A stretch of 64,000 bases of DNA from Anaerocolumna aminovalerica (GTDB taxonomy: Bacteria > Bacillota > Clostridia > Lachnospirales > Lachnospiraceae), in contig NZ_FOWD01000004.1 in the NCBI RefSeq assembly GCF_900115365.1, positions 153,308 through 217,307 of the forward strand, in the 5' to 3' direction. Both the position numbers and the translations under genes were made by a program. This document shows positions 8,041 to 17,664 of this stretch, one piece after another (position 1 is the first letter of the stretch; each line of letters begins with the position of its first letter). A model generated the notes under the pieces. That model was not told the DNA's origin. It ran no database searches and worked only from the letters and a program-made list of their open reading frames with translations.

Positions 8041-8102
8041 ACAAATTTTTATATGGTCTTCAAAAAGTATTAAGAAATATCTTACGAATAAATTGTAGGA
8101 AA

Positions 8103-8132
8103 GGCACTTAATTGGTCCCACTAACATAGATT
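8103..8132 (+). promoter_or_regulatory. SigE/SigK-like (mother-cell) promoter for sigK
   Basis: GGCACTTA (8103-8110), a 14-bp spacer and CATAGATT (8125-8132) resemble the Bacillus/Clostridium SigE consensus (GKCATATT with CATACAMT). It sits 33 bp upstream of the sigK GTG. No good SigA promoter is seen in this gap. Confidence 0.5.
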
Positions 8133-8165
8133 AATAATAAACTCTAATCATGAGGTGCTTATTCA

Positions 8166-8459
8166 GTGAAATCTTTTCCGAAACCACTGAGCGCCAAGGA
8201 AGAAACGGATATCTTGAACCTATGTAAACAAGGTAATAAGGAAGCGAGAGACATCCTAATTGAAAGAAATCTCCGTCTGGTTGCACATATTGTTAAAAAA
8301 TATAATACGGCGGAAAAAGACATAGATGACCTGATATCGATTGGCACAATCGGACTGATCAAAGCAATAGACACCTTTGATTCAGATAAAGGTATAAGAC
8401 TTGCTACTTACGCATCCCGATGTATTGATAATGCACTTTTGCACATTGGCGGTAATTAA
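8166..8459 (+). pseudogene. sigK: sigK 5' half, interrupted by a skin-like element (SpoIVCB-like)
   Basis: Residues 1-89 are the N-terminal half of sporulation sigma factor K: FPKPLSAKEE, NLRLVAHIVKKY, DLISIGTIGLIKAI and LATYASRCIDN of sigma region 2. After Asn89 (codon 8430-8432) homology ends; the last few residues (ALLHIGGN) are read from the inserted element. This is a developmentally split gene rather than a decayed one: joining AATG 8430-8433 to AATG 17302-17305 gives CIDN-ELLMMLRNGK in frame. GAGGTG precedes the GTG start. A stop 15 bp upstream and the lack of any leader before FPKPL show that there is no SigK pro-sequence, as in C. difficile and unlike B. subtilis. Confidence 0.93.
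8430..8457. other. attL: left end of the skin-like element
   Basis: The core AATG (8430-8433) is shared with attR at 17302-17305. On the element side, 12 bp away, lies TTGGCGGTAATT (8446-8457). This is the exact reverse complement of AATTACCGCCAA at 17275-17286. The sigK side of the core is coding sequence for CIDN. Confidence 0.88.
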
Positions 8460-8471
8460 AACTAGTTAGTA

Positions 8472-8516
8472 AAAAAGGTTTCCTTAAAATTTAATGATAA
8501 TAGGGAAGCTTTTTTC
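8472..8516 (+). terminator. Imperfect terminator downstream of the sigK 5' half
   Basis: AAAAAGGTTTCC and GGGAAGCTTTTTT can form an imperfect stem that runs into a T-tract just inside the element. It would stop transcription from the sigK promoter while the element is in place. Confidence 0.5.
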
Positions 8517-8564
8517 TTATATGAGTTATAAATTGGTTTTATGGTAAAATATTCATCAAATTTG

Positions 8565-8593
8565 TTGACACTAACGAAGTATGGAGTTATAAT
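8565..8593 (+). promoter_or_regulatory. Consensus SigA promoter for the peptide transporter operon
   Basis: TTGACA (8565-8570), exactly 17 bp, then TATAAT (8588-8593): both hexamers are perfect consensus. The cargo operon should therefore be expressed in growing cells, independently of sporulation. Confidence 0.8.
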
Positions 8594-8596
8594 CTT

Positions 8597-8628
8597 ATTC
8601 ATACTATTCATATAAACATAGTATGAAT
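8597..8628 (+). promoter_or_regulatory. Inverted repeat at the operon start, candidate operator
   Basis: ATTCATACTAT (8597-8607) and ATAGTATGAAT (8618-8628) are perfect 11-bp inverted repeats with a 10-bp spacer, starting 3 bp after the -10 box. The position over the transcription start fits a repressor site, but a 5' mRNA hairpin is equally possible. Confidence 0.55.
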
Positions 8629-8733
8629 ATAGAAAAATCTTTGAAAATAGAATTTTGAATATGTACTCTAAAAGAATTTTAAATTAAGGAGATAGGCTAT
8701 TAAAAGGCGCTAAAGCGCGGAATCGAGGATTGT

Positions 8734-10398
8734 ATGAAAAAAAATAGTAGTAGAAGAATAGCTTTATTACTAATAACTGCAGCAATGGTTGCATTAACAG
8801 CTTGTGGAAAGAAAAATGCAGATAATTCAGTTGGCAATTTAACTGCAGACCATGACAATGGAGCAAATACAGAGGGAGGAAACTCTGGAAATATTGTGAA
8901 TATAGGAGTAACAGATACTATAGGTTCCCTAAATCCATTACTTCAAGACGGTACAGAAGTCGTAAAATATGCTGCTTCTCTTTCCTTTCTTTCTCTGATA
9001 GAGCTAAATAAAAATCTGGAATTTGAAGCACAAATAGCAAAAGAAATTACAACAGAAGATAATAAGCATTTTACTATCAAACTGGATGAAAATGCAACAT
9101 GGTCTGATGGTACACCAATTACATCAAAGGATGTGTTATTTAGTTTTTTATGCTGGGCAAGTCCGGAAGTGGGTAACACAGGTATGTCCATATATAAGAT
9201 TGAAGGTATTGGAGATGATGGATATGTAGAGACCGGCGCAGAGGAAATCAGTGGAATCAAAGCAATAAATGAAAAAACGGTTGAAATCACAACAAAATCT
9301 GAAATGGCTCTTTATGCATTTAATAATACTTATGGAAGATATATTTTAATTTTACCGGAGCATATACTGGGAAGTGTTCCTAAAGAAGATTTATTGACTT
9401 ATAAATGGTTTAATACACCAAATGTAATAAGCGGACCTTATTTTATTACTGATTTTGATTTGAATCATTATGTAACTTATGTGGCAAATGATAACTATTG
9501 GAAAGGTTCTCCTAAGATTAAAAGCTTAAATATTAAAGTGGTGACTTCCAGCCAGCTTCTTGCAGGACTTCAGTCAGGTGAAATTGATCTGGTTCAACAG
9601 ACAATGGGAGTAATATTACAGGAAGATTATGAATCTGTGGAAGCTTTAAGTAATATAACCGTATTTGAAGGAACTCCGGTTACGAATCAATCAATTTTCA
9701 TTAATACAGATAATATTAGGGATGTTCGAATTCGTCAGGCAATACTTTATGGAATTGATAGAGAAATCATATTGAATGAAATTCTAAAAGGAAATGGAGA
9801 AATCGTGGATGGATTCCTTGCAAGTGCCGGTCCTTTCTATGATAGCAGCTTAAAGCCTACGGAATATAATCCCCAAAAGGCTGCAGCTTTAGTAAAAGAA
9901 GCAGAAGCAGATGGATGGGATCCTTCCACTCAATATACTTTCTATGTAAACAGCGGGGATACTACATTTACCCAGGTTGCCAGTTTTTATACTGCACAGT
10001 TAGCGGAAATAGGAATTAATTTGAAAGTTAATACCGTTGATTTATCAACATTAATGTCAGTAGCAGGTAGCAGAGAATTTGATATTATGGCAGTGCAATA
10101 TACTTTTACTCCAGTAGATCCCTATACAGACGTAGACTGGCTTTTGTCTAAAGATGGCTGGACCGGATATTATAATGAAGAAGTCGCAGCTGCTCTTGTT
10201 AAAACCCAGACAGTTAAGGACAATGAAGAAATAAAAAATTTGTATCTGACGATAGACACTTATGTACAAAAGGAAGTTCCAATGATTTCTGCATATATTA
10301 TCAGCGCTCTTGGTGCAAAAAGCAATCGTCTTCAAAATGCGGTTCCTGATGTATATGGTACGTTTCTCAATGTACATGAATGGGAAATAGCAGAATAA
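8734..10398 (+). CDS. Peptide-binding lipoprotein of an ABC importer (solute-binding family 5)
   Basis: The 554-residue protein begins with a lipoprotein signal (MKKNSSRRIALLL...LTAC) with Cys24 as the acylated residue. A low-complexity linker follows, then a family 5 (DppA/OppA-type) binding domain with WSDGTPITSKDVLFSF and IRQAILYGIDREIIL. It would capture short peptides outside the membrane and deliver them to the two permeases encoded downstream. It is the first gene of the operon inside the skin-like element, 23 bp before the first ATPase gene. The ligand could also be nickel or another family 5 substrate; peptides are the default for this five-gene layout. Confidence 0.85.
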   Translation: MKKNSSRRIALLLITAAMVALTACGKKNADNSVGNLTADHDNGANTEGGNSGNIVNIGVTDTIGSLNPLLQDGTEVVKYAASLSFLSLIELNKNLEFEAQIAKEITTEDNKHFTIKLDENATWSDGTPITSKDVLFSFLCWASPEVGNTGMSIYKIEGIGDDGYVETGAEEISGIKAINEKTVEITTKSEMALYAFNNTYGRYILILPEHILGSVPKEDLLTYKWFNTPNVISGPYFITDFDLNHYVTYVANDNYWKGSPKIKSLNIKVVTSSQLLAGLQSGEIDLVQQTMGVILQEDYESVEALSNITVFEGTPVTNQSIFINTDNIRDVRIRQAILYGIDREIILNEILKGNGEIVDGFLASAGPFYDSSLKPTEYNPQKAAALVKEAEADGWDPSTQYTFYVNSGDTTFTQVASFYTAQLAEIGINLKVNTVDLSTLMSVAGSREFDIMAVQYTFTPVDPYTDVDWLLSKDGWTGYYNEEVAAALVKTQTVKDNEEIKNLYLTIDTYVQKEVPMISAYIISALGAKSNRLQNAVPDVYGTFLNVHEWEIAE

Positions 10399-10420
10399 TA
10401 CAGAAAGGGGCAGGGGGAAG

Positions 10421-11413
10421 ATGATACCATTATTGGAAGTAAAGAAACTGGAAGTTGCATTTATAGAAGATCATAAACAGACAATATGTACGGATAAAGT
10501 AAGTTTTTCGGTAAATCCGGGTGAAATTCTTTGCATAGTAGGAGAATCCGGATGCGGTAAGAGTGTGACCGCGCTGTCAATTATGGGACTTCTAGGTAAT
10601 ACAGCAAAGGTTATTGGTGGTGAAGTGCTCTTTGAAGGAAAAGATTTACTCAAAATGACAGAAAGGGAACTGGATAAAATTAGGGGAAGTGAACTTACCA
10701 TGGTCTTTCAAGATGTAATGAATAGTTTAAATCCGGTATTTACCATAGGAAATCAACTGGAGGAAACCATTCGCATTCATCTGGGATATGATAAAAAAGC
10801 AGCAAGAGAATATGCTATAGAAATACTGGAAAAGGTTGGGCTTCCGGATTCGAAAGCTATATTAAAGAAATATCCCCATATGTTGTCCGGCGGCATGCGC
10901 CAGAGAGTAATGATAGCCATGGCACTTGCCTGTCATCCTAAACTTATCATAGCAGATGAACCTACCACAGCTTTGGATGTAACCATACAGCTGCAGATCA
11001 TGAAACTTTTACTTGAACTTCGTAGGGAATTTAAGTTATCCATTATATTAATTACCCATGACATGGGAGTGGTTGCGGAATTAGCAGACAGGGTAATCGT
11101 AATGTATGCAGGACAATGTGTGGAAGAAGCTGATGTAAATTCTCTTTTTGAAAATCCGGTTCATCCATATACACAGGCGTTACTACAATCAGTTCCGAGT
11201 ATTTATGGCAATAGAAATCAAAAATTAGCATCCATTCCCGGAATAGTACCTGAAAAATACCAGAATATGAAGGGATGTCGCTTTGCCAAACGATGCCCCT
11301 ATGCTTCTCCCGAATGTGCAAACAGGCAATTGTATCAGAAGTTTGATTCAAAACATAAGGTACGATGCCATCTTGCCCGAACCGGAAAGGAGACGATTTC
11401 TAATGTTTCATAA
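10421..11413 (+). CDS. Peptide ABC transporter ATPase (OppD/DppD type)
   Basis: The 330-residue ATPase has Walker A GESGCGKS, signature LSGGMRQRV, Walker B LIIADEPTTALD and the H-loop THDMG. Its C-terminal extension with GCRFAKRCPYASPEC is specific to the OppD/DppD/OppF group. AAGGGGCAGGGGG precedes the ATG. It overlaps the next gene by 11 bp and would pair with that protein to drive the importer. Confidence 0.92.
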   Translation: MIPLLEVKKLEVAFIEDHKQTICTDKVSFSVNPGEILCIVGESGCGKSVTALSIMGLLGNTAKVIGGEVLFEGKDLLKMTERELDKIRGSELTMVFQDVMNSLNPVFTIGNQLEETIRIHLGYDKKAAREYAIEILEKVGLPDSKAILKKYPHMLSGGMRQRVMIAMALACHPKLIIADEPTTALDVTIQLQIMKLLLELRREFKLSIILITHDMGVVAELADRVIVMYAGQCVEEADVNSLFENPVHPYTQALLQSVPSIYGNRNQKLASIPGIVPEKYQNMKGCRFAKRCPYASPECANRQLYQKFDSKHKVRCHLARTGKETISNVS

Positions 11414-12449
11414 AGAAATAAAAGAGCCTCTAATGAGGATAGAGAATCTAAGAAAAGATTATCCGGCTAAGGGAACCGGTCTCATAGGACATAAAAATAT
11501 GATACATTCTGTGGATGGAATTGATTTAACCATTTATGAAGGAGAAACTCTTGGTATTGTAGGGGAATCCGGCTGTGGTAAGTCAACAATGGGACGACAG
11601 ATGGTAGCTTTGGAGCGGCCTACTTCAGGCCGCGTTCTTTATAAAGAGCAGGATATATCCAATATGCCCGCTGGTCAGCTTCAAAAAATACGTACAGAAT
11701 TTCAGATGATATTTCAAGACTCCACTTCTTCTTTGAACCCAAGAAAGCAGATTTATGATATATTGGCTGCTCCTATGCTCTACCATGGAATTGTCAAAAA
11801 GGAAAATATAAGTCATGAAATAAACCGGCTTCTGAATCTGGTGGGATTACCAAGCTCAGTCAGACACAGATATCCTCATGAATTTTCAGGAGGACAAAGA
11901 CAAAGAATTGGAATAGCAAAAGCGCTGTCTTTAAAGCCTAAACTAATTGTATGCGATGAGCCGGTTAGCGCTTTGGATGTTTCTGTTCAGGCTCAGGTAC
12001 TAAATTTATTAAGACAACTACAGGAAGAGCTAAGACTGACATATGTATTTATTGGGCATGGACTGGGAGCTGTTCATTATATAAGTAATCGCATTGCAGT
12101 TATGTATTTGGGAAAAATTGTGGAGGTAGCAGATACAGAAGAACTTTTTAATAATCCCATACATCCATATTCTAAAGCTCTTTTTGATGCCTCTCCTTTG
12201 CCGGATCCAAAGTGTCGTCACCGGGACAGAATAGTCCTAAGTGGAGAGATACCATCTGCAGCAGCACTTCCCGGTGGCTGCAGGTTTCATACTCGATGTC
12301 CTTATGCCGTGGATTCCTGTAGAGAAATGGAACCCAAATTAGAATCAATTAGTGCCGGCAGCAACCACTTATCAGCCTGTCCGGTGATGTCAGATAATTT
12401 ACGCAGAAGAGATTTCTCTAATGGAAGGGAGGAAAATAAAGATAATTAA
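11403..12449 (+). CDS. Peptide ABC transporter ATPase (OppF/DppF type)
   Basis: The 348-residue ATPase has Walker A GESGCGKST, signature FSGGQRQRIGIAKAL, Walker B LIVCDEPVSALD and the tail GGCRFHTRCPYAVDSC. The frame is open further upstream, but ATG 11403 is chosen because MFHKEIKEPLMRIENLRKDY begins the family's usual N-terminus and is preceded by GAAAGGAG inside the end of the previous gene. The usual H-loop THDL is read here as IGHGLG, an uncommon change: the switch histidine appears to be kept but the following Asp is Gly. Confidence 0.9.
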   Translation: MFHKEIKEPLMRIENLRKDYPAKGTGLIGHKNMIHSVDGIDLTIYEGETLGIVGESGCGKSTMGRQMVALERPTSGRVLYKEQDISNMPAGQLQKIRTEFQMIFQDSTSSLNPRKQIYDILAAPMLYHGIVKKENISHEINRLLNLVGLPSSVRHRYPHEFSGGQRQRIGIAKALSLKPKLIVCDEPVSALDVSVQAQVLNLLRQLQEELRLTYVFIGHGLGAVHYISNRIAVMYLGKIVEVADTEELFNNPIHPYSKALFDASPLPDPKCRHRDRIVLSGEIPSAAALPGGCRFHTRCPYAVDSCREMEPKLESISAGSNHLSACPVMSDNLRRRDFSNGREENKDN

Positions 12450-13389
12450 ATATATAATAAAAAGAATATTCACTGCCCTGCCTGTGCTCCTTGGAATCAC
12501 CATTATTGATTTTATAATTATGAGTCTTGCAGGAAGTCCTTTGGAAATGATGGCAGGACCCAGAGTTACAGCTGGGGCAGTAGAAGTGAAGGCGGTCAAA
12601 TTAGGTTTGGATCAGCCGGTATATCAGCAGTATCTTAATTGGTTAAGCCAGCTGCTTAAGGGAAATTTGGGATATTCTATTAAGAATTATCAGCCCGTTA
12701 GTGAAATTATTGGAAGCCATATTGGACCTACTTTTTTATTAATGGGCACATCCATAATCATAGGTTTAATTATAGCGGTACCTTTCGGTATTTATAGTGC
12801 AGTACATCGTTATACTAAGCGTGATTATGCCCTGGTTTCTCTTTCGTTCTTAGGAAGCAGTATTCCAAGTTTTTTTCTTTCGCTGATATTTATTTATGTA
12901 TTTACGGTACGTCTTGGGTGGCTGCCATCAAGCGGTATGACCACTGTAGGTGGTGAAGGGGGAGTTTTAGATATAATAAAACATATGATCATGCCTAGTA
13001 TGATTTTAGCAATCTCAATTGCCGGTTCTAATATTCGGTATATTAGAAGCTCGGTATTGGAGATATTACAGCAGGATTATCTGCGAACGGCAAAATCAAA
13101 AGGAATAGGCCGGTTTTTAACCATTAATAAACATGGACTGCGGAATGCTTTAATTCCTATAGTTACAGTGCTTGGCATGCAGATTCCTATGTTGTTTGGT
13201 GGTGCAGTTATCATTGAACAGGTTTTTAGCTGGCCGGGACTGGGACTGATTACTATGAATGCCATAACAGGACGGGATTATCCTGTTATTATGGGAGTTT
13301 GTCTATTAACTGCGGTGGTGGTTTTAGCAGCTAACTTACTTACAGATATTGTATATGCCTTGGTAGATCCAACAATTAAGTATCAGTAA
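12421..13389 (+). CDS. Peptide ABC transporter permease (OppB/DppB type)
   Basis: The ~322-residue membrane protein begins KYIIKRIFTALPVLLGITIIDF, typical of DppB/OppB. It has about six membrane segments and the BPD_transp coupling region (RTAKSKGIGRF...HGLRNALIPI). ATG 12421 overlaps the ATPase gene by 29 bp and has a poor upstream ribosome site. A good GGGAGG (12426-12431) lies after it with no ATG/GTG/TTG at the right distance, so the exact start is unsure. Confidence 0.9.
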   Translation: MEGRKIKIIKYIIKRIFTALPVLLGITIIDFIIMSLAGSPLEMMAGPRVTAGAVEVKAVKLGLDQPVYQQYLNWLSQLLKGNLGYSIKNYQPVSEIIGSHIGPTFLLMGTSIIIGLIIAVPFGIYSAVHRYTKRDYALVSLSFLGSSIPSFFLSLIFIYVFTVRLGWLPSSGMTTVGGEGGVLDIIKHMIMPSMILAISIAGSNIRYIRSSVLEILQQDYLRTAKSKGIGRFLTINKHGLRNALIPIVTVLGMQIPMLFGGAVIIEQVFSWPGLGLITMNAITGRDYPVIMGVCLLTAVVVLAANLLTDIVYALVDPTIKYQ

Positions 13390-13409
13390 TTATGGAGGAA
13401 CAACTGTAA

Positions 13410-14279
13410 ATGAAAAAGATATTAGAAGAAAATCTATACGGTCAGAGCGGTTGGAGGATGATAATCAAACGATTTAAAAAACATAAACTTGCAGTTGTCA
13501 GTCTTTGGTTTTTATGTATAGTGGTAGTTCTTGCAATATTTGCACCGGTTATAGCTCCATATGATCCAAATAAAGTGACAGGTTCATTTGGAAGACCACC
13601 CACTTTGGAACATTGGCTTGGAACTGATCAGATAGGCAGAGATATGTTAAGCAGACTTCTTTATGCTACCCGCTGTTCTCTGCTGGTAGGATTTGCAGCT
13701 ACTATTATTTCAACAATAATCGGAGTGATATTAGGACTGGTATCAGGATATTTCGGCGGTTTTGTGGATAATATTATTATGCGTATTACCGATACCATTA
13801 TGTCCTTTCCATATATATTATTAGTTTTGGTTGCAGCAGCTATTTTTGAACCTGGTTTATGGAATATTATATTAATCCTTGGCCTTGTAGACTGGCCGGG
13901 CGTTGCAAGGCTTGTTAGAGGCAGTGTGTTATCCCTAAGGGAAACGGATTTTATAAAAGGAGATATGGTGGCGGGTATGCCAAGGAGATATATTTTATTC
14001 TCTGAGATCTTACCTAATACAATTGCTCCTGTATTGGTATATGCTACCACAGTCTTTGCCATATCCATTCTGGATGAAGCTGCATTAAGTTTCCTGGGGA
14101 TGGGTGTACAGCCTCCAACAGCCAGTCTTGGGAATATTTTAAATGGAGCGGAATCCATTACTATTCTTACGAGTAAGTTCTGGCTATGGATTCCTGCGGG
14201 ACTTATTGTTATACTATTGGTTATCAGTATTAATTTTATAGGAGATGCATTACGTGATGCAGTTGATCCTACCGCATGA
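13410..14279 (+). CDS. Peptide ABC transporter permease (OppC/DppC type)
   Basis: The 289-residue protein has the OppC N-terminal segment before membrane helix 1 (WRMIIKRFKKHKLAVVSLWFL), then APYDPN...HWLGTDQIGRDMLSRLLYATR, the hallmark of this family. The coupling-loop region follows at GDMVAGMPRRYILFSEILPN, and the end is INFIGDALRDAVDPT. It is the last gene of the transporter operon and completes the importer. Confidence 0.92.
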   Translation: MKKILEENLYGQSGWRMIIKRFKKHKLAVVSLWFLCIVVVLAIFAPVIAPYDPNKVTGSFGRPPTLEHWLGTDQIGRDMLSRLLYATRCSLLVGFAATIISTIIGVILGLVSGYFGGFVDNIIMRITDTIMSFPYILLVLVAAAIFEPGLWNIILILGLVDWPGVARLVRGSVLSLRETDFIKGDMVAGMPRRYILFSEILPNTIAPVLVYATTVFAISILDEAALSFLGMGVQPPTASLGNILNGAESITILTSKFWLWIPAGLIVILLVISINFIGDALRDAVDPTA

Positions 14280-14337
14280 ATTGGATATAATTCACATGTA
14301 GAATGAATAATACATCACAAATGGGAATGGAGAGGAA

Positions 14338-14430
14338 GAGTGAAAGAAAATATAATTTATGAAAGGCTGCCACCAACAGATTCTTTCACTCATTTTTATT
14401 TATGGCAGTATCCCAGGCTCACCTGGGATA
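14338..14430 (+). promoter_or_regulatory. Leader with competing hairpins before the C39-like gene
   Basis: GAGTGAAAGAA (14338-14348) pairs perfectly with TTCTTTCACTC (14381-14391). An alternative CTGCCA / TGGCAG pairing overlaps this region. A compact 9-bp hairpin TATCCCAGG-CTCA-CCTGGGATA follows at 14409-14430, 21 bp before the start codon. No T-tract follows. Control of the downstream gene is an inference. Confidence 0.4.
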
Positions 14431-14451
14431 TGCAACGGGTGTAAAATATAA

Positions 14452-15075
14452 ATGAAAAACATATTAAATTATCAGACATCAGAATATGATTGCGGCCCTA
14501 CCACACTAATAAATGCCTTCCGCTATTTATTTGAGAGAGAGCAGCTGACACCGGAACTGCTAAAGACCATTTCGATGTATACACTAGATGCGTATGATGA
14601 AAAAGGAGAATCCGGAAAAAACGGAACCTCTAAAATGGCAATGAAATTTATCTCCAGTTGGCTGAATCAATATGGAATAACCAAGAATTTTCCTGTCTTT
14701 TCTGAATTTTTAGAAGGGGAGCAGGTATACATCGGACAAAATAGCGGAATTATAGGATGTCTTCAACAACGTGGAGTAGTGGTTGCAAGAGTTTGGCTGG
14801 AGGATGTTGGACATTATGTTCTGCTAAATGATGTTGCGGGAGATGTAATTGAAGTATTTGATCCATATTATATAGAGAACTTTCCTGATAACCATGAAGT
14901 TTCTGTTGTGGAAGGACTGCCAGGTAAATTGAACCGCAGAGTAAAGGCGGAATTAATGAATCGGAAAGAACCGGTTTCTTATGCTTTCGGACCTGTAGAG
15001 ATTAGAGAAGCAATGCTTATCTATAATACAACAACCCGAAAAACGGAAGAAAATTCAATTGAATATATTATATAG
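14452..15075 (+). CDS. C39-like papain-fold cysteine peptidase, cytosolic
   Basis: The 207-residue protein has YDCGPTTLINAF near the start, with Cys14 as the expected nucleophile, GHYVLLND with His121, and FDPY with Asp137. This is the catalytic triad order of peptidase C39/BtrH-like cysteine proteases. It has no signal peptide, no membrane segment and no ABC domain. It follows the peptide importer, so cutting imported peptides or an element-borne substrate is plausible, but the substrate is unknown. The ribosome site (ACGGGTG) is weak. Confidence 0.65.
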   Translation: MKNILNYQTSEYDCGPTTLINAFRYLFEREQLTPELLKTISMYTLDAYDEKGESGKNGTSKMAMKFISSWLNQYGITKNFPVFSEFLEGEQVYIGQNSGIIGCLQQRGVVVARVWLEDVGHYVLLNDVAGDVIEVFDPYYIENFPDNHEVSVVEGLPGKLNRRVKAELMNRKEPVSYAFGPVEIREAMLIYNTTTRKTEENSIEYII

Positions 15076-15240
15076 TTAAATAAAAAAGTAACTTATTATC
15101 CTAACGCTGAAAACCAGGATATTTATGAAAAGCTGTATGCAGAATTTAAAATTCTTCATGAATATTTTGGAAATGGACAAAATGATGTTATGAAACGTTT
15201 AAAAGATATAAAATCAGAAGTCAGAAGAAGTGATTTTTAG
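15076..15240 (+). pseudogene. Remnant of the L-ribulokinase (araB) C-terminus
   Basis: A 54-codon open stretch with no start codon reads [18 protein letters not shown], then [20 protein letters not shown]. This matches the C-terminal end of FGGY-family L-ribulokinases. It lies in the same frame directly after the stop codon of the C39-like gene. The rest of the kinase is absent, so this is debris from an earlier cargo or insertion. Confidence 0.65.
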
Positions 15241-15272
15241 GATACCTATAAAATTTAACAGTATAATAATTG

Positions 15273-15303
15273 AGCCAGCATCAGAATACAGGTGCTGGCT
15301 TTT
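15273..15303 (+). terminator. Rho-independent terminator inside the element
   Basis: AGCCAGCATC (15273-15282) pairs with GGTGCTGGCT (15291-15300) and is followed by TTT. It closes off the cargo region from the recombinase unit. Confidence 0.7.
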
Positions 15304-15316
15304 AACATTACTTGAA

Positions 15317-15344
15317 ATAAGACAAACCGCACAAGTCATATGAT
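15317..15344 (+). promoter_or_regulatory. SigE-like promoter for the recombinase unit
   Basis: An ATA core (15317-15319), 17 bp, then CATATGAT (15337-15344) fits the SigE pattern ATA-N16-18-CATANNNT. It is the only promoter-like signal between the terminator and the 66-residue gene. If real, it would limit excision to the sporulating mother cell. Confidence 0.5.
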
Positions 15345-15371
15345 ATATAAATAGACAACGGAGTTGTTCAT

Positions 15372-15572
15372 ATGGCAAGAAAACCGGCAGAATTTGAAGT
15401 TATTTTTCATTTACCTAAAGATGAAAAAGGAAAACAATTATTAGCAAAGACATTAGGTGAAGTTCATACTAAAATGATAAAAGAAATCATGAACCGGAAA
15501 ATAAATGATGCAGTACAGAGGAATAAAATGATGGCGGAAATACAAAAAAAATTATGTAATCAATCGGAATAG
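15372..15572 (+). CDS. Small protein upstream of the recombinase, candidate recombination directionality factor
   Basis: The 66-residue, lysine-rich, mostly helical protein (MARKPAEFEVIFHLPKDEKG at its start) has a good ribosome site (GGAG, 8 bp upstream). It lies 24 bp before the recombinase and is cotranscribed with it from a SigE-like promoter. I do not recognise its family. Excision of the C. difficile skin needs a small element-encoded directionality factor made under SigE. The position of this gene makes it the best candidate here; that role is an inference. Confidence 0.6.
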   Translation: MARKPAEFEVIFHLPKDEKGKQLLAKTLGEVHTKMIKEIMNRKINDAVQRNKMMAEIQKKLCNQSE

Positions 15573-15596
15573 AATTGTTTAAGTCAGGGGATCAAA

Positions 15597-17270
15597 ATGG
15601 AGAAAAAAGTGATTGCCATTTATGCAAGAAAAAGTAAAGCAACGGATAAAGGTGAAAGCCTTCAGGTACAAATAGAAAAGTGCAAACAACTTGCCAGGTT
15701 TAAATACTCCGATTTTAAAACGGAATTTATTATATATGAGGAACAAGAGGGAAAAACAGGAGCCAACTTAGACAGGGAAAAATTTAAAGAATTGATGGGG
15801 GATATTACCAGTGGAAGTAAGCCTATACATATATTATTGGTATATAAATTAGATCGCTTAACACGTTCTGTTCAAGATTTTACTGAAATCTATGAAATAC
15901 TAAATGCCCATGGAACGGAGTTCATCAGTGTAAAGGAAGATTTTGATACCACAACACCAATGGGAAGAGCAATGTTGACTATTACCGTAGTTTTTGCTCA
16001 ATTAGAAAGAGAAGTCATCGCAGAACGTATTCAAGACTCTATGCTGGAACTGGCAAAGCGGGGAAGATGGTTGGGAGGAAAAACTCCTTTTGCTTATGAA
16101 TCAAAACTTACGTCATATATTAATCATGGAGGGCAGGAAAAAAAGAAAAATTATTTAGAAATCGTTCCTGGAGAAGCAGAAATAATTGAAAAAATATTTG
16201 CAAATTATTTAGAGTTGGGCTCTTTATCCAAGGTAGAAGCATATTTATTAAAACACTTATACAAAACCCGTTCTGACTCAGATTTTAGAAGATACAGCAT
16301 TAAATTTATACTGGCAAATCCTGTTTACTGCAAAGCTGATTTGAATGCCTATGAGTACTTTATAAAAAACGGCTATTCTATATATTCTCCTAAAGAAACA
16401 TTTGACGGTGAACATGGAATAATGGCCTATAATAAGACTTTATCGGTAAAATATAATGACACTAATCTGGATATGAAAGAATCAAGATGGAGAAAGAAAG
16501 AAGACTGGGTTATTGCAGTGGGTGAGCATAAGCCATTAGTTGAAAGCGGTGACTGGATTAAAGTACAAAAAATGCTGGATAAAAATAAAGAAAAATCCTA
16601 TCGTGCTTCAAGAACAACGGATGCCTTACTTTCCGGTGTATTAAAATGTAAATGCGGCCATCCAATGAGACCAAAAACATCCGGTACTCGGAATTCTGAA
16701 GGTGAAAAGTCTTTTTATTATCTGTGCGAAATGAAAGAAAGAAGTAAAGGAGCACGTTGCAAAGAGTGTAATCTAGCAGGTAATATTTTAGATAAAATTA
16801 TTATAAAAAAAATAACAGAATTAGAAAAAGAGATTGCACCTATATTTAATAAAGCACTATTCAGATGCCATAAAAGAAAAGAAGATAATCGTATATTCAG
16901 TACTGCCAGAGATAGTTATATAAGAAATCAGATTGATAAAACTAAGAGATATATAAATAATATTAAAAAAGCAATTCTGAAAGCCACAACGGAAGAAGCT
17001 ATTGCTGATTTTATAGAAGAATATCAGGTTTATCTGGAGGAATTAAAACAGTTGGAAATTTCATTAGAAGATACAATTGAGGAAGAAGTCATGGAATATG
17101 GGGAAGAAGAATGGGTTGAATTATTAACCGTATTTGATAAAATAATGTGGAAAGAGTTGAGTTATGAACAAAGGAAATATGCTGTGAAAGAATTAATTGA
17201 AGAAATTTATTGGAATGGTGGAAAAGTAGAAGTGTTTTTTAAAGGCAGCAACCTGTCAGAGAAGTGTTAG
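15597..17270 (+). CDS. Large serine recombinase of the skin-like element (SpoIVCA-like)
   Basis: The 557-residue protein has an N-terminal resolvase domain with AIYARKSKATDKGES (Ser13 is the expected nucleophile), KLDRLTRSVQD and FAQLEREVIAERIQ. A recombinase domain follows. The zinc ribbon (LLSGVLKCKCGHPM near residue 350, then YYLCEMK and RCKEC) leads into a coiled-coil C-terminal part (about residues 430-510). This is the architecture of large serine recombinases such as B. subtilis SpoIVCA, which rebuilds sigK during sporulation. The stop codon lies 4 bp before the right inverted arm of the attachment site. AGGGG precedes ATG 15597. Confidence 0.93.
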   Translation: MEKKVIAIYARKSKATDKGESLQVQIEKCKQLARFKYSDFKTEFIIYEEQEGKTGANLDREKFKELMGDITSGSKPIHILLVYKLDRLTRSVQDFTEIYEILNAHGTEFISVKEDFDTTTPMGRAMLTITVVFAQLEREVIAERIQDSMLELAKRGRWLGGKTPFAYESKLTSYINHGGQEKKKNYLEIVPGEAEIIEKIFANYLELGSLSKVEAYLLKHLYKTRSDSDFRRYSIKFILANPVYCKADLNAYEYFIKNGYSIYSPKETFDGEHGIMAYNKTLSVKYNDTNLDMKESRWRKKEDWVIAVGEHKPLVESGDWIKVQKMLDKNKEKSYRASRTTDALLSGVLKCKCGHPMRPKTSGTRNSEGEKSFYYLCEMKERSKGARCKECNLAGNILDKIIIKKITELEKEIAPIFNKALFRCHKRKEDNRIFSTARDSYIRNQIDKTKRYINNIKKAILKATTEEAIADFIEEYQVYLEELKQLEISLEDTIEEEVMEYGEEEWVELLTVFDKIMWKELSYEQRKYAVKELIEEIYWNGGKVEVFFKGSNLSEKC

Positions 17271-17274
17271 CTGC

Positions 17275-17305
17275 AATTACCGCCAAACATGAGAAAGAGC
17301 AAATG
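17275..17305. other. attR: right end of the skin-like element
   Basis: AATTACCGCCAA (17275-17286) lies 15 bp from the AATG core (17302-17305). The sequence after the core resumes sigK coding in frame (GAA TTG TTA ATG ATG). Joined to the left end on an excised circle it gives an attP with inverted 12-bp arms around the core. Confidence 0.88.
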
Positions 17306-17664
17306 AATTGTTAATGATGCTAAGAAATGGGAAGCGGCAGGCAAAAGAAGTATACCTTTATGAACCTATCGGTTCTGATAAAGAAGGTCATGAAATAAAT
17401 CTACTGGACATTATTGAAAGTGCAGACACGGATATTGTGGATGAGCTGGAGTTACAAGGTAATATCAAGCGTTTATATACATTAGTGGATAAAGTATTAA
17501 CAAAACGGGAACGACAAATTATTGAAATGCGGTATGGATTAAATTCAAACAATGAAGTTACCCAAAGAGAAATTGCCAATATTATAGGTATATCCAGATC
17601 CTATGTATCAAGAATTGAGAAAAAAGCGTTGAAGAAATTACGAGAAGGATTTGAAAAAGGATAA
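17306..17664 (+). pseudogene. sigK: sigK 3' half (SpoIIIC-like)
   Basis: This is the C-terminal half of SigK: LRNGKRQAKEV, EPIGSDKEGHEINLLDI, then region 4 with LTKRERQIIEMRYGL, TQREIANIIGISRSYVSRIEKKAL. It has no ribosome site or credible start codon of its own and is expected to be expressed only after excision joins it to the 5' half. The junction codon is GAA at 17305-17307. The joined protein is 89 + 119 = 208 residues. A strong terminator follows at 17772. Confidence 0.93.

What the first reader, a model, noticed from the sequence alone, without database searches (positions are those of the whole stretch)
8166..17664. sigK is split by an 8.87-kb skin-like element, and precise excision restores an in-frame SigK
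The N-terminal (8166-) and C-terminal (-17664) halves of sporulation SigK are 8.9 kb apart on the same strand, with a large serine recombinase at the right end. Joining AATG 8430-8433 to AATG 17302-17305 gives CIDN-ELLMMLRNGK, the conserved SigK junction, and a 208-residue protein. Known knowledge: B. subtilis and C. difficile use skin excision to time SigK activity in the mother cell. Inference: this organism uses the same developmental rearrangement with an unrelated cargo.
Basis: partly seen in the sequence, partly recalled or inferred. Interest (0 to 1): 0.93.

Follow-up and report, generated by a model that had tools for sequence, protein, structure and literature searches.

The report
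Transporter operon hidden inside split sigK

Summary
sigK is split at AATG (8430-8433 / 17302-17305) by an 8872-bp element. The joined 208-residue protein passes the SigK cut-off, and the genome has no other SigK. Eleven of 14 congeners have an intact sigK that is collinear through the junction. Both halves are under purifying selection.

The element holds a large serine recombinase (LSR), a 66-aa gene just upstream (candidate recombination directionality factor, RDF), a 12-bp inverted repeat at its ends, and as cargo an Opp/Dpp-type ABC-transporter operon with a C39-like gene. No phage structural or replication family was found. The sister genome G014 has the same left end with other cargo.

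Thirty family and order genomes have an LSR in or beside sigK, at the same Asn codon in every junction read, with swapped cargo (PTS, GH94/GH3 with ABC permeases, two-component systems). RDF-like genes occur in 10 of 12 family elements; 9 of these 10 have an upstream ATA-N17-CATA (sigma-E-like) motif, against 1 of 10 LSR genes. They were not found in two reversed elements read in full. Excision was not observed.

Outside the window a spoIIID gene is also split by an LSR element. Verdict: a real skin-type element of a non-phage, cargo-carrying variant.

The parts
8091..8165 (+). sigK upstream region, conserved in the congeners (GGAAAGGCACT...CATAGA...)
   Evidence: upstream sequences of 11 intact congener genes printed beside the window's
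8166..8433 (+). sigK N-terminal half (89 codons plus one base, up to the AATG core; the ORF runs on to 8459)
8430..8433 (+). AATG core of attL
   Evidence: same position in other genomes
8446..8457 (.). left arm of the 12-bp perfect inverted repeat TTGGCGGTAATT
   Evidence: G014 has TTTGGCGGTAA at the same place
8734..10398 (+). solute-binding protein of an Opp/Dpp-type ABC transporter (SBP_bac_5)
10421..11413 (+). ABC transporter ATPase 1 (ABC_tran, oligo_HPY)
11403..12449 (+). ABC transporter ATPase 2 (ABC_tran, oligo_HPY)
12421..13389 (+). ABC permease 1
13410..14279 (+). ABC permease 2 (Opp4C equivalog, over cut-off)
14452..15075 (+). 207-aa C39-like protein (the name is my reading of the sequence; no Pfam, NCBIfam or PHROG match), conserved at the end of this operon in relatives
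15076..15240 (+). remnant of a ribulokinase C-terminus (54 codons and a stop)
   Evidence: 63% identical over 49 residues to the genome's own ribulokinase
15317..15340 (+). sigma-E-like promoter motif ATA-N17-CATA with AGACA inside
15372..15572 (+). 66-aa basic protein (pI 9.6), candidate recombination directionality factor
   Evidence: homologs in other sigK elements
15597..17270 (+). large serine recombinase, 557 aa
17275..17286 (.). right arm of the 12-bp perfect inverted repeat
17302..17305 (+). AATG core of attR
17306..17664 (+). sigK C-terminal half

Best explanation
An 8872-bp element with a serine recombinase, a small conserved partner gene and a peptide-transport operon splits sigK at one AATG, and the recombinase likely removes it in the mother cell to give an intact 208-residue SigK. 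Predicted steps: sigma-E, helped by SpoIIID, would switch on the 66-aa gene and the recombinase from the ATA-N17-CATA promoter; the 66-aa protein would act as the directionality factor that lets the recombinase join attL to attR; the circle would be lost with the mother cell, while the forespore keeps the element and its cargo. Shown by sequence: the split, the in-frame junction, purifying selection on both halves, the element ends, the recurring partner gene and promoter motif, and the use of the same codon by elements with different cargo. Inferred: excision, its timing, its cell type and the role of the 66-aa protein.
For: Joined protein over the SigK cut-off and no other SigK. Empty site in 11 of 14 congeners. 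dN/dS 0.061 for the N-half and 0.050 for the C-half against congeners; window against G014, both with the element's left end, dN 0.0098 and dS 0.169. Full-length LSR of the usual domain order; catalytic-motif residues (YARKS) invariant or nearly so in its relatives. 12-bp inverted repeat. Same left end with other cargo in G014. Thirty genomes with an LSR in or beside sigK, same codon in each junction read. RDF-like gene in 10 of 12 family elements and promoter motif before 9 of these 10, against 1 of 10 LSR genes; 4 of 4 RDF-like genes found later have it. SigE and SpoIIID are encoded.
Against: No excision product, reads or transcripts. dN/dS of the window's halves is higher than among intact congeners (0.061 vs 0.035; 0.050 vs 0.014, the C values from 3 of 11 and 10 of 55 pairs). 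No RDF-like gene was found in G260, in the G042 fragment, in G481 and G573 (both sigK halves in hand) or in 19.9 kb of G460, G483 and G601. The promoter motif was drawn from the same alignment that was then counted, and one match alone is weak: the window has 28, with 21 expected. G260 shows that such elements can lose their LSR.
Confidence: 0.82

Rival explanations
1. A dead insertion: sigK has been knocked out and the lineage no longer completes sporulation.
For: No excision was observed. G260, with the same kind of split, has a truncated LSR of 324 aa, so locked elements exist. dN/dS is somewhat raised in the window's halves.
Against: dN/dS stays near 0.05-0.06, also between the window and G014, which shares the element's left end. 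The LSR is full length and the element ends are preserved. The same split recurs in about thirty genomes.
Confidence: 0.07
2. A mobile island that excises at random or on some other signal; sigK is only a safe landing site and the excision is not tied to the mother cell.
For: Elements with the same arms sit at other sites in G182 and G130; G045 and G235 carry RepA_N and MobA/MobL genes; cargo is exchanged.
Against: The sigma-E-like motif precedes the RDF-like gene and not the LSR. Frequent excision in growing cells would lose the island.
Confidence: 0.12
3. Excision is programmed, but the 66-aa protein is not the directionality factor (for example a regulator of the LSR).
For: No family or fold match; the model is one long helix after an N-terminal coil. 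It was not found in G481 and G573.
Against: It is the only gene besides the LSR that I found shared by elements with unrelated cargo. Its size is like that of known RDFs (CD1234 72 aa, GirX 42 aa; passages). It was not found in the stretches fetched for 4 LSR loci away from sigK.
Confidence: 0.2

Closest known systems
skin element of Bacillus subtilis (spoIVCB / spoIVCA / spoIIIC)
   Same: sigK split, LSR in the element, in-frame joining in the mother cell (here predicted); recombination sequence AATGA (PMC10745906, passages), which contains the AATG used here. That it is the same codon is recalled, not tested.
   Different: 48 kb with mostly phage genes there, 8.9 kb with a transporter operon here. 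B. subtilis SigK has a pro-sequence; the intact congener genes here leave no room for one (frames of 212-224 codons stop to stop).
skinCd of Clostridioides difficile with LSR CD1231 and RDF CD1234
   Same: no pro-sequence; small RDF under sigma-E and SpoIIID, LSR not sporulation-specific there (PMC5025042, passages), like the motif distribution found here
   Different: Prophage-like 14.6 kb, other site and opposite orientation compared with B. subtilis. CD1234 was not compared by sequence here. In the window the 66-aa gene and the LSR lie 24 bp apart and would share a promoter.
gin element in gerE of Bacillus cereus (GirC, GirX)
   Same: non-phage gene-intervening element; RDF recognised by conservation while other genes vary (PMC5595907, passages)
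   Different: other target gene; no nutrient-uptake cargo in the passages read
island IV in sigK of Bacillus cereus biovar anthracis
   Same: non-phage island in sigK, excised during sporulation, with cargo (type I restriction-modification; PMC10745906, passages)
   Different: position 195 of sigK with another recombination sequence; cargo is defence, not uptake
sigK prophages of Clostridium tetani and C. perfringens
   Same: sigK interrupted by an element with a serine recombinase (PMC5553647, passages)
   Different: prophages with structural modules

Membership tests
skin-type sigK intervening element | sigK split into two segments that join in frame to a full SigK | tested here: met
skin-type sigK intervening element | own site-specific large serine recombinase | tested here: met
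skin-type sigK intervening element | precise excision during sporulation, in the mother cell only | not testable with these tools
   inferred from empty sites, selection and promoter motif
skin-type sigK intervening element | short direct repeat at both ends of the element | tested here: met
   AATG, 4 bp
Prophage | phage structural or replication genes | tested here: not met
   Pfam and PHROGs on the 8 element proteins: integrase and ABC-transporter families only, or unknown-function families matching the transporter proteins
Integrative mobilizable element | relaxase | tested here: not met
   none in the window's element; MobA/MobL in the elements of G045 and G235
Recombination directionality factor (66-aa protein) | needed with the LSR for attL x attR recombination | not testable with these tools
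   only conservation, size and promoter motif

The most novel reading that the evidence does not exclude
One codon of sigK is a standing docking port across a whole bacterial order: several LSR lineages carry swappable nutrient-uptake and regulatory operons there and pay for the seat with a sigma-E-driven directionality factor that clears the gene in the doomed mother cell, so metabolic islands ride in the germ line under the protection of a developmental gene. In the window's genus the regulator one step above, spoIIID, is split in the same way, which makes the late mother-cell programme a two-lock DNA-rearrangement cascade.
Probability: 0.55. Interest if true: 0.88.

Novelty: new variant of a known kind. 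Interest (0 to 1): 0.82.

Why it matters
A 2016 paper calls a skin element an exception in clostridia (PMC5025042, passage). Here such splits are seen in thirty genomes of the family and order samples, at one codon, with uptake and regulatory operons in place of phage genes in the elements read. If the mechanism holds, this gives a natural comparative set for the old question of why sigK is interrupted at all, a testable new family of directionality factors with its promoter, and new LSR/RDF/att sets. The pair window and G014 suggests cargo replacement between fixed ends.

Tried and rejected
Vertical descent of the cargo from an arrangement like G001's, where the same six-gene operon lies directly upstream of an intact sigK: not supported, because the window's operon is about equally far from all seven congener copies (62-65%), on a long branch of its own and not next to G001's (unrooted tree); no sigK remnant was found upstream of G001's operon. 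Whole prophage: no structural or replication family. Fold of the 66-aa protein: one-helix model, no PDB match. The genome-contig scan with the LSR gave one distant locus (33%) and viral contigs only relatives of at most 41%, so the 12 closest other LSRs (P0009-P0020, 58-94%) could not be placed in a context. A single origin of sigK-targeting LSRs: the quick tree forces at least 8 changes of the sigK label (SH-aLRT only, several long branches). Screening by open-frame length was partial, because its list of matches was cut.
Full report
Check of the observation. The two sigK halves are ORFs 8166-8459 and 17308-17664, both on the + strand. Joined at AATG 8430-8433 / 17302-17305 they give 208 residues. 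Each half alone is a partial spore_sigmaK match (151.4 and 143.6 bits); the joined protein passes the equivalog cut-off (306.9 against 298.65), and the genome's best intact candidate is SigE. The search of the whole genome (4.62 Mb, 83 contigs, 99.86% complete) shows no other SigK. The direct repeat is only 4 bp, but the element side carries a 12-bp perfect inverted repeat, TTGGCGGTAATT at 8446-8457 against 17275-17286.

Empty sites. Of 14 congeners, 11 have an intact sigK of 85-91% identity, G014 shows only the N-half, and G006 and G009 (both 63% complete) show no SigK. The window's flanks align collinearly across the junction in all 11 loci. The 11 intact frames are 212-224 codons from stop to stop, which leaves no room for a pro-sequence of the B. 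subtilis kind. dN/dS of the window's halves is 0.061 (N, median of 11 pairs) and 0.050 (C, the 3 of 11 pairs with usable dS), against 0.035 (55 pairs) and 0.014 (10 of 55 pairs) among intact congeners: higher, but far from neutral. Window against G014, N-half only, gives dN 0.0098 and dS 0.169. The split gene is therefore still selected.

Content. The element holds a five-gene Opp/Dpp-type transporter, a 207-aa C39-like gene, a 54-codon ribulokinase remnant, the 66-aa gene and the LSR. PHROGs finds the integrase family for the LSR, ABC-transporter or unknown-function families for the transporter proteins, and nothing for the other two. The six-gene operon occurs in the same order outside sigK in 7 congeners and 2 other genera. 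The window's C39-like gene is the only match in its genome. The window's operon is 62-65% identical to the congeners' copies and sits on a long branch, so it was either brought in or evolves fast. In the sister G014 (93% DNA identity over the 400 bp up to the junction) the same attL is followed by other genes: a ROK regulator, a permease, hydantoinase A, a 204-aa protein and a ribulokinase that runs off the contig. The remnant in the window matches the C-terminal part of ribulokinases, beginning about 18 residues past where G014's contig ends. This points to a cargo swap between fixed ends; G014's right end is not assembled, and no LSR or sigK C-half was found in G014.

Not a one-off. A profile of the window's LSR clade (A1) was run on 397 family genomes: 15 matched at E <= 1e-120. 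In 11 of these 15 the LSR lies inside a split sigK or beside a sigK half: G000, G042 (C-half only, contig edge), G045, G046, G080, G185, G207, G215, G230, G235 and G334; the other 4 are G130, G137, G182 and G358. G260 was found through its short C-half frame and has a truncated LSR. A second profile (A3) was run on 392 order genomes: 41 matched at E <= 1e-150 and 30 loci were returned; a sigK half lies next to the LSR in 23 of these 30 (21 C-half, 2 N-half with the LSR reversed). Together these are 30 genomes: 12 from the family sample and 18 more from the order sample. G014 makes 31. At most three candidates per genome were scored in these searches, so the counts are lower bounds. G588 and G646 are of G334's genus, and G481 and G573 share a genus.

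Same codon. Left junctions were read in 17 genomes (11, 5, G014) and right junctions in 29 (10, G230, 18). All lie at the Asn codon of C-[IV]-[DE]-N-E. The core is AATG, with AACG on the right side in G207, G215, G465, G483 and G618, and AAAC (G080) and AATA (G481) on the left side. Most family elements share AATGCTATCC[TA][CA]TC or close to it on the left and GAGGATAGCAAA[TC]G or close to it on the right, which would make a palindrome in the circle. The window's arms differ. Elements with similar arms sit at other places in G182 and G130. In the LSR tree sigK-residing LSRs are clustered but fall in several lineages.

Cargo elsewhere (Pfam): G080 a PTS IIABC, a GH1 glycosidase and a PRD/CAT antiterminator; G045 GH3, GH16, two GH94, two ABC permeases, RepA_N and MobA/MobL; G235 RepA_N, MobA/MobL, BlaR1-type and penicillinase-repressor-type regulators; G230 two two-component systems and an ABC-2 permease; G046 a two-component system; G207 and G215 AAA_14-DUF4143; G334 melibiase and a cytochrome-b5 domain; G185 two proteins without a match. 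Sizes run from about 3.6 to 25 kb. Pfam, not PHROGs, was used there, and not every ORF was scanned.

Candidate RDF and promoter. The 66-aa protein has 7 homologs in the large protein set (72-98% identical) and one in G080's element (32%, single-comparison E 2e-10). RDF-like genes are present in 10 of 12 family elements: 9 by tblastn besides the window's own. They are missing in G260 and in the G042 fragment, and were not found in the stretches of the 4 non-sigK LSR loci (its profile was built from the ten). In 18 regions fetched later that profile found it in G515, G588, G646 and G455. It was not found in G481 and G573 (both halves in hand), nor in G460, G483 and G601 (19.9 kb each, N-half not reached or unclear); the other 9 stretches are only 3.5-6.3 kb. 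Upstream, AT[AT]-N17-CATA stands in 9 of 10 (0.23 expected from shuffles), against 1 of 10 before the LSRs (0.28 expected). The pattern was taken from the same alignment, and five of the ten elements are close kin. Of the four later genes 4 have it, of which only G515 and G455 are independent of G334's genus. In the window as a whole the motif occurs 28 times with 21 expected, so a single match means little. A GGACA or AGACA lies inside in most; the sigma-E and SpoIIID consensus sequences are recalled, not from a call. In the window the 66-aa gene and the LSR are 24 bp apart and would share the promoter. SpoIIID and SigE are encoded. The pattern resembles C. difficile, where the RDF CD1234 and not the LSR is under sigma-E and SpoIIID (PMC5025042, passages).

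Outside the window. A spoIIID gene on contig C52 is split too: its halves lie 16.6 kb apart with an LSR before the C-half, next to an intact divergent spoIIID paralog. The joined protein scores 127.5 against a cut-off of 111.5. In the genus 14 of 15 genomes match the SpoIIID family, and each of the 14 shows an intact copy plus separate N and C pieces (the C piece is weak in G009; in G009, G010 and G014 the pieces are on different contigs). In the 7 regions read in full (G000, G001, G002, G004, G007, G012, G013) an LSR lies between the halves, 51-56% identical to G000's in the other six. One search for a split spoIIID gave no such title or abstract (listing only).

Literature. Searches for sigK with skin element, intervening element, Lachnospiraceae, integrase, AATGA or spoIVCA (listings, plus passages of the papers named) showed no report of such elements in this family; most subscription papers are not held. 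That the family is Lachnospiraceae is my inference, not from a call.

Noticed in passing
own genome contig C52:25602-42865 (L247), outside the window; congeners L276-L282: A spoIIID gene is split by an LSR-bearing stretch of 16.6 kb, next to an intact divergent paralog; the same split, with an LSR between the halves, was read in full in six congeners.
   Followed up: partly
L047 (G001): The same six-gene transporter operon lies directly upstream of an intact sigK, with no LSR found there, although the window's copy is not its close ortholog.
   Followed up: partly
L191 (G182), L192 (G130): LSRs of the same family with similar att arms sit away from sigK, which looks like secondary-site insertion.
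   Followed up: partly
L241 (G573), L242 (G481): sigK is split at the same codon by an element whose LSR points the other way and lies next to the N-half; no RDF-like gene was found.
   Followed up: no
L176 (G260): sigK is split by a 4.35-kb stretch with a truncated LSR (324 aa), a possible locked element.
   Followed up: no
L059-L064, L066, L067: Congeners hold an LSR 37-40% identical to the window's, away from sigK; eight of these loci show an ABC ATPase gene nearby.
   Followed up: no
L001, L002, L003, L005 (own genome, C50, C54, C29): Four further LSR genes in the window's genome; whether they interrupt other genes was not examined.
   Followed up: no
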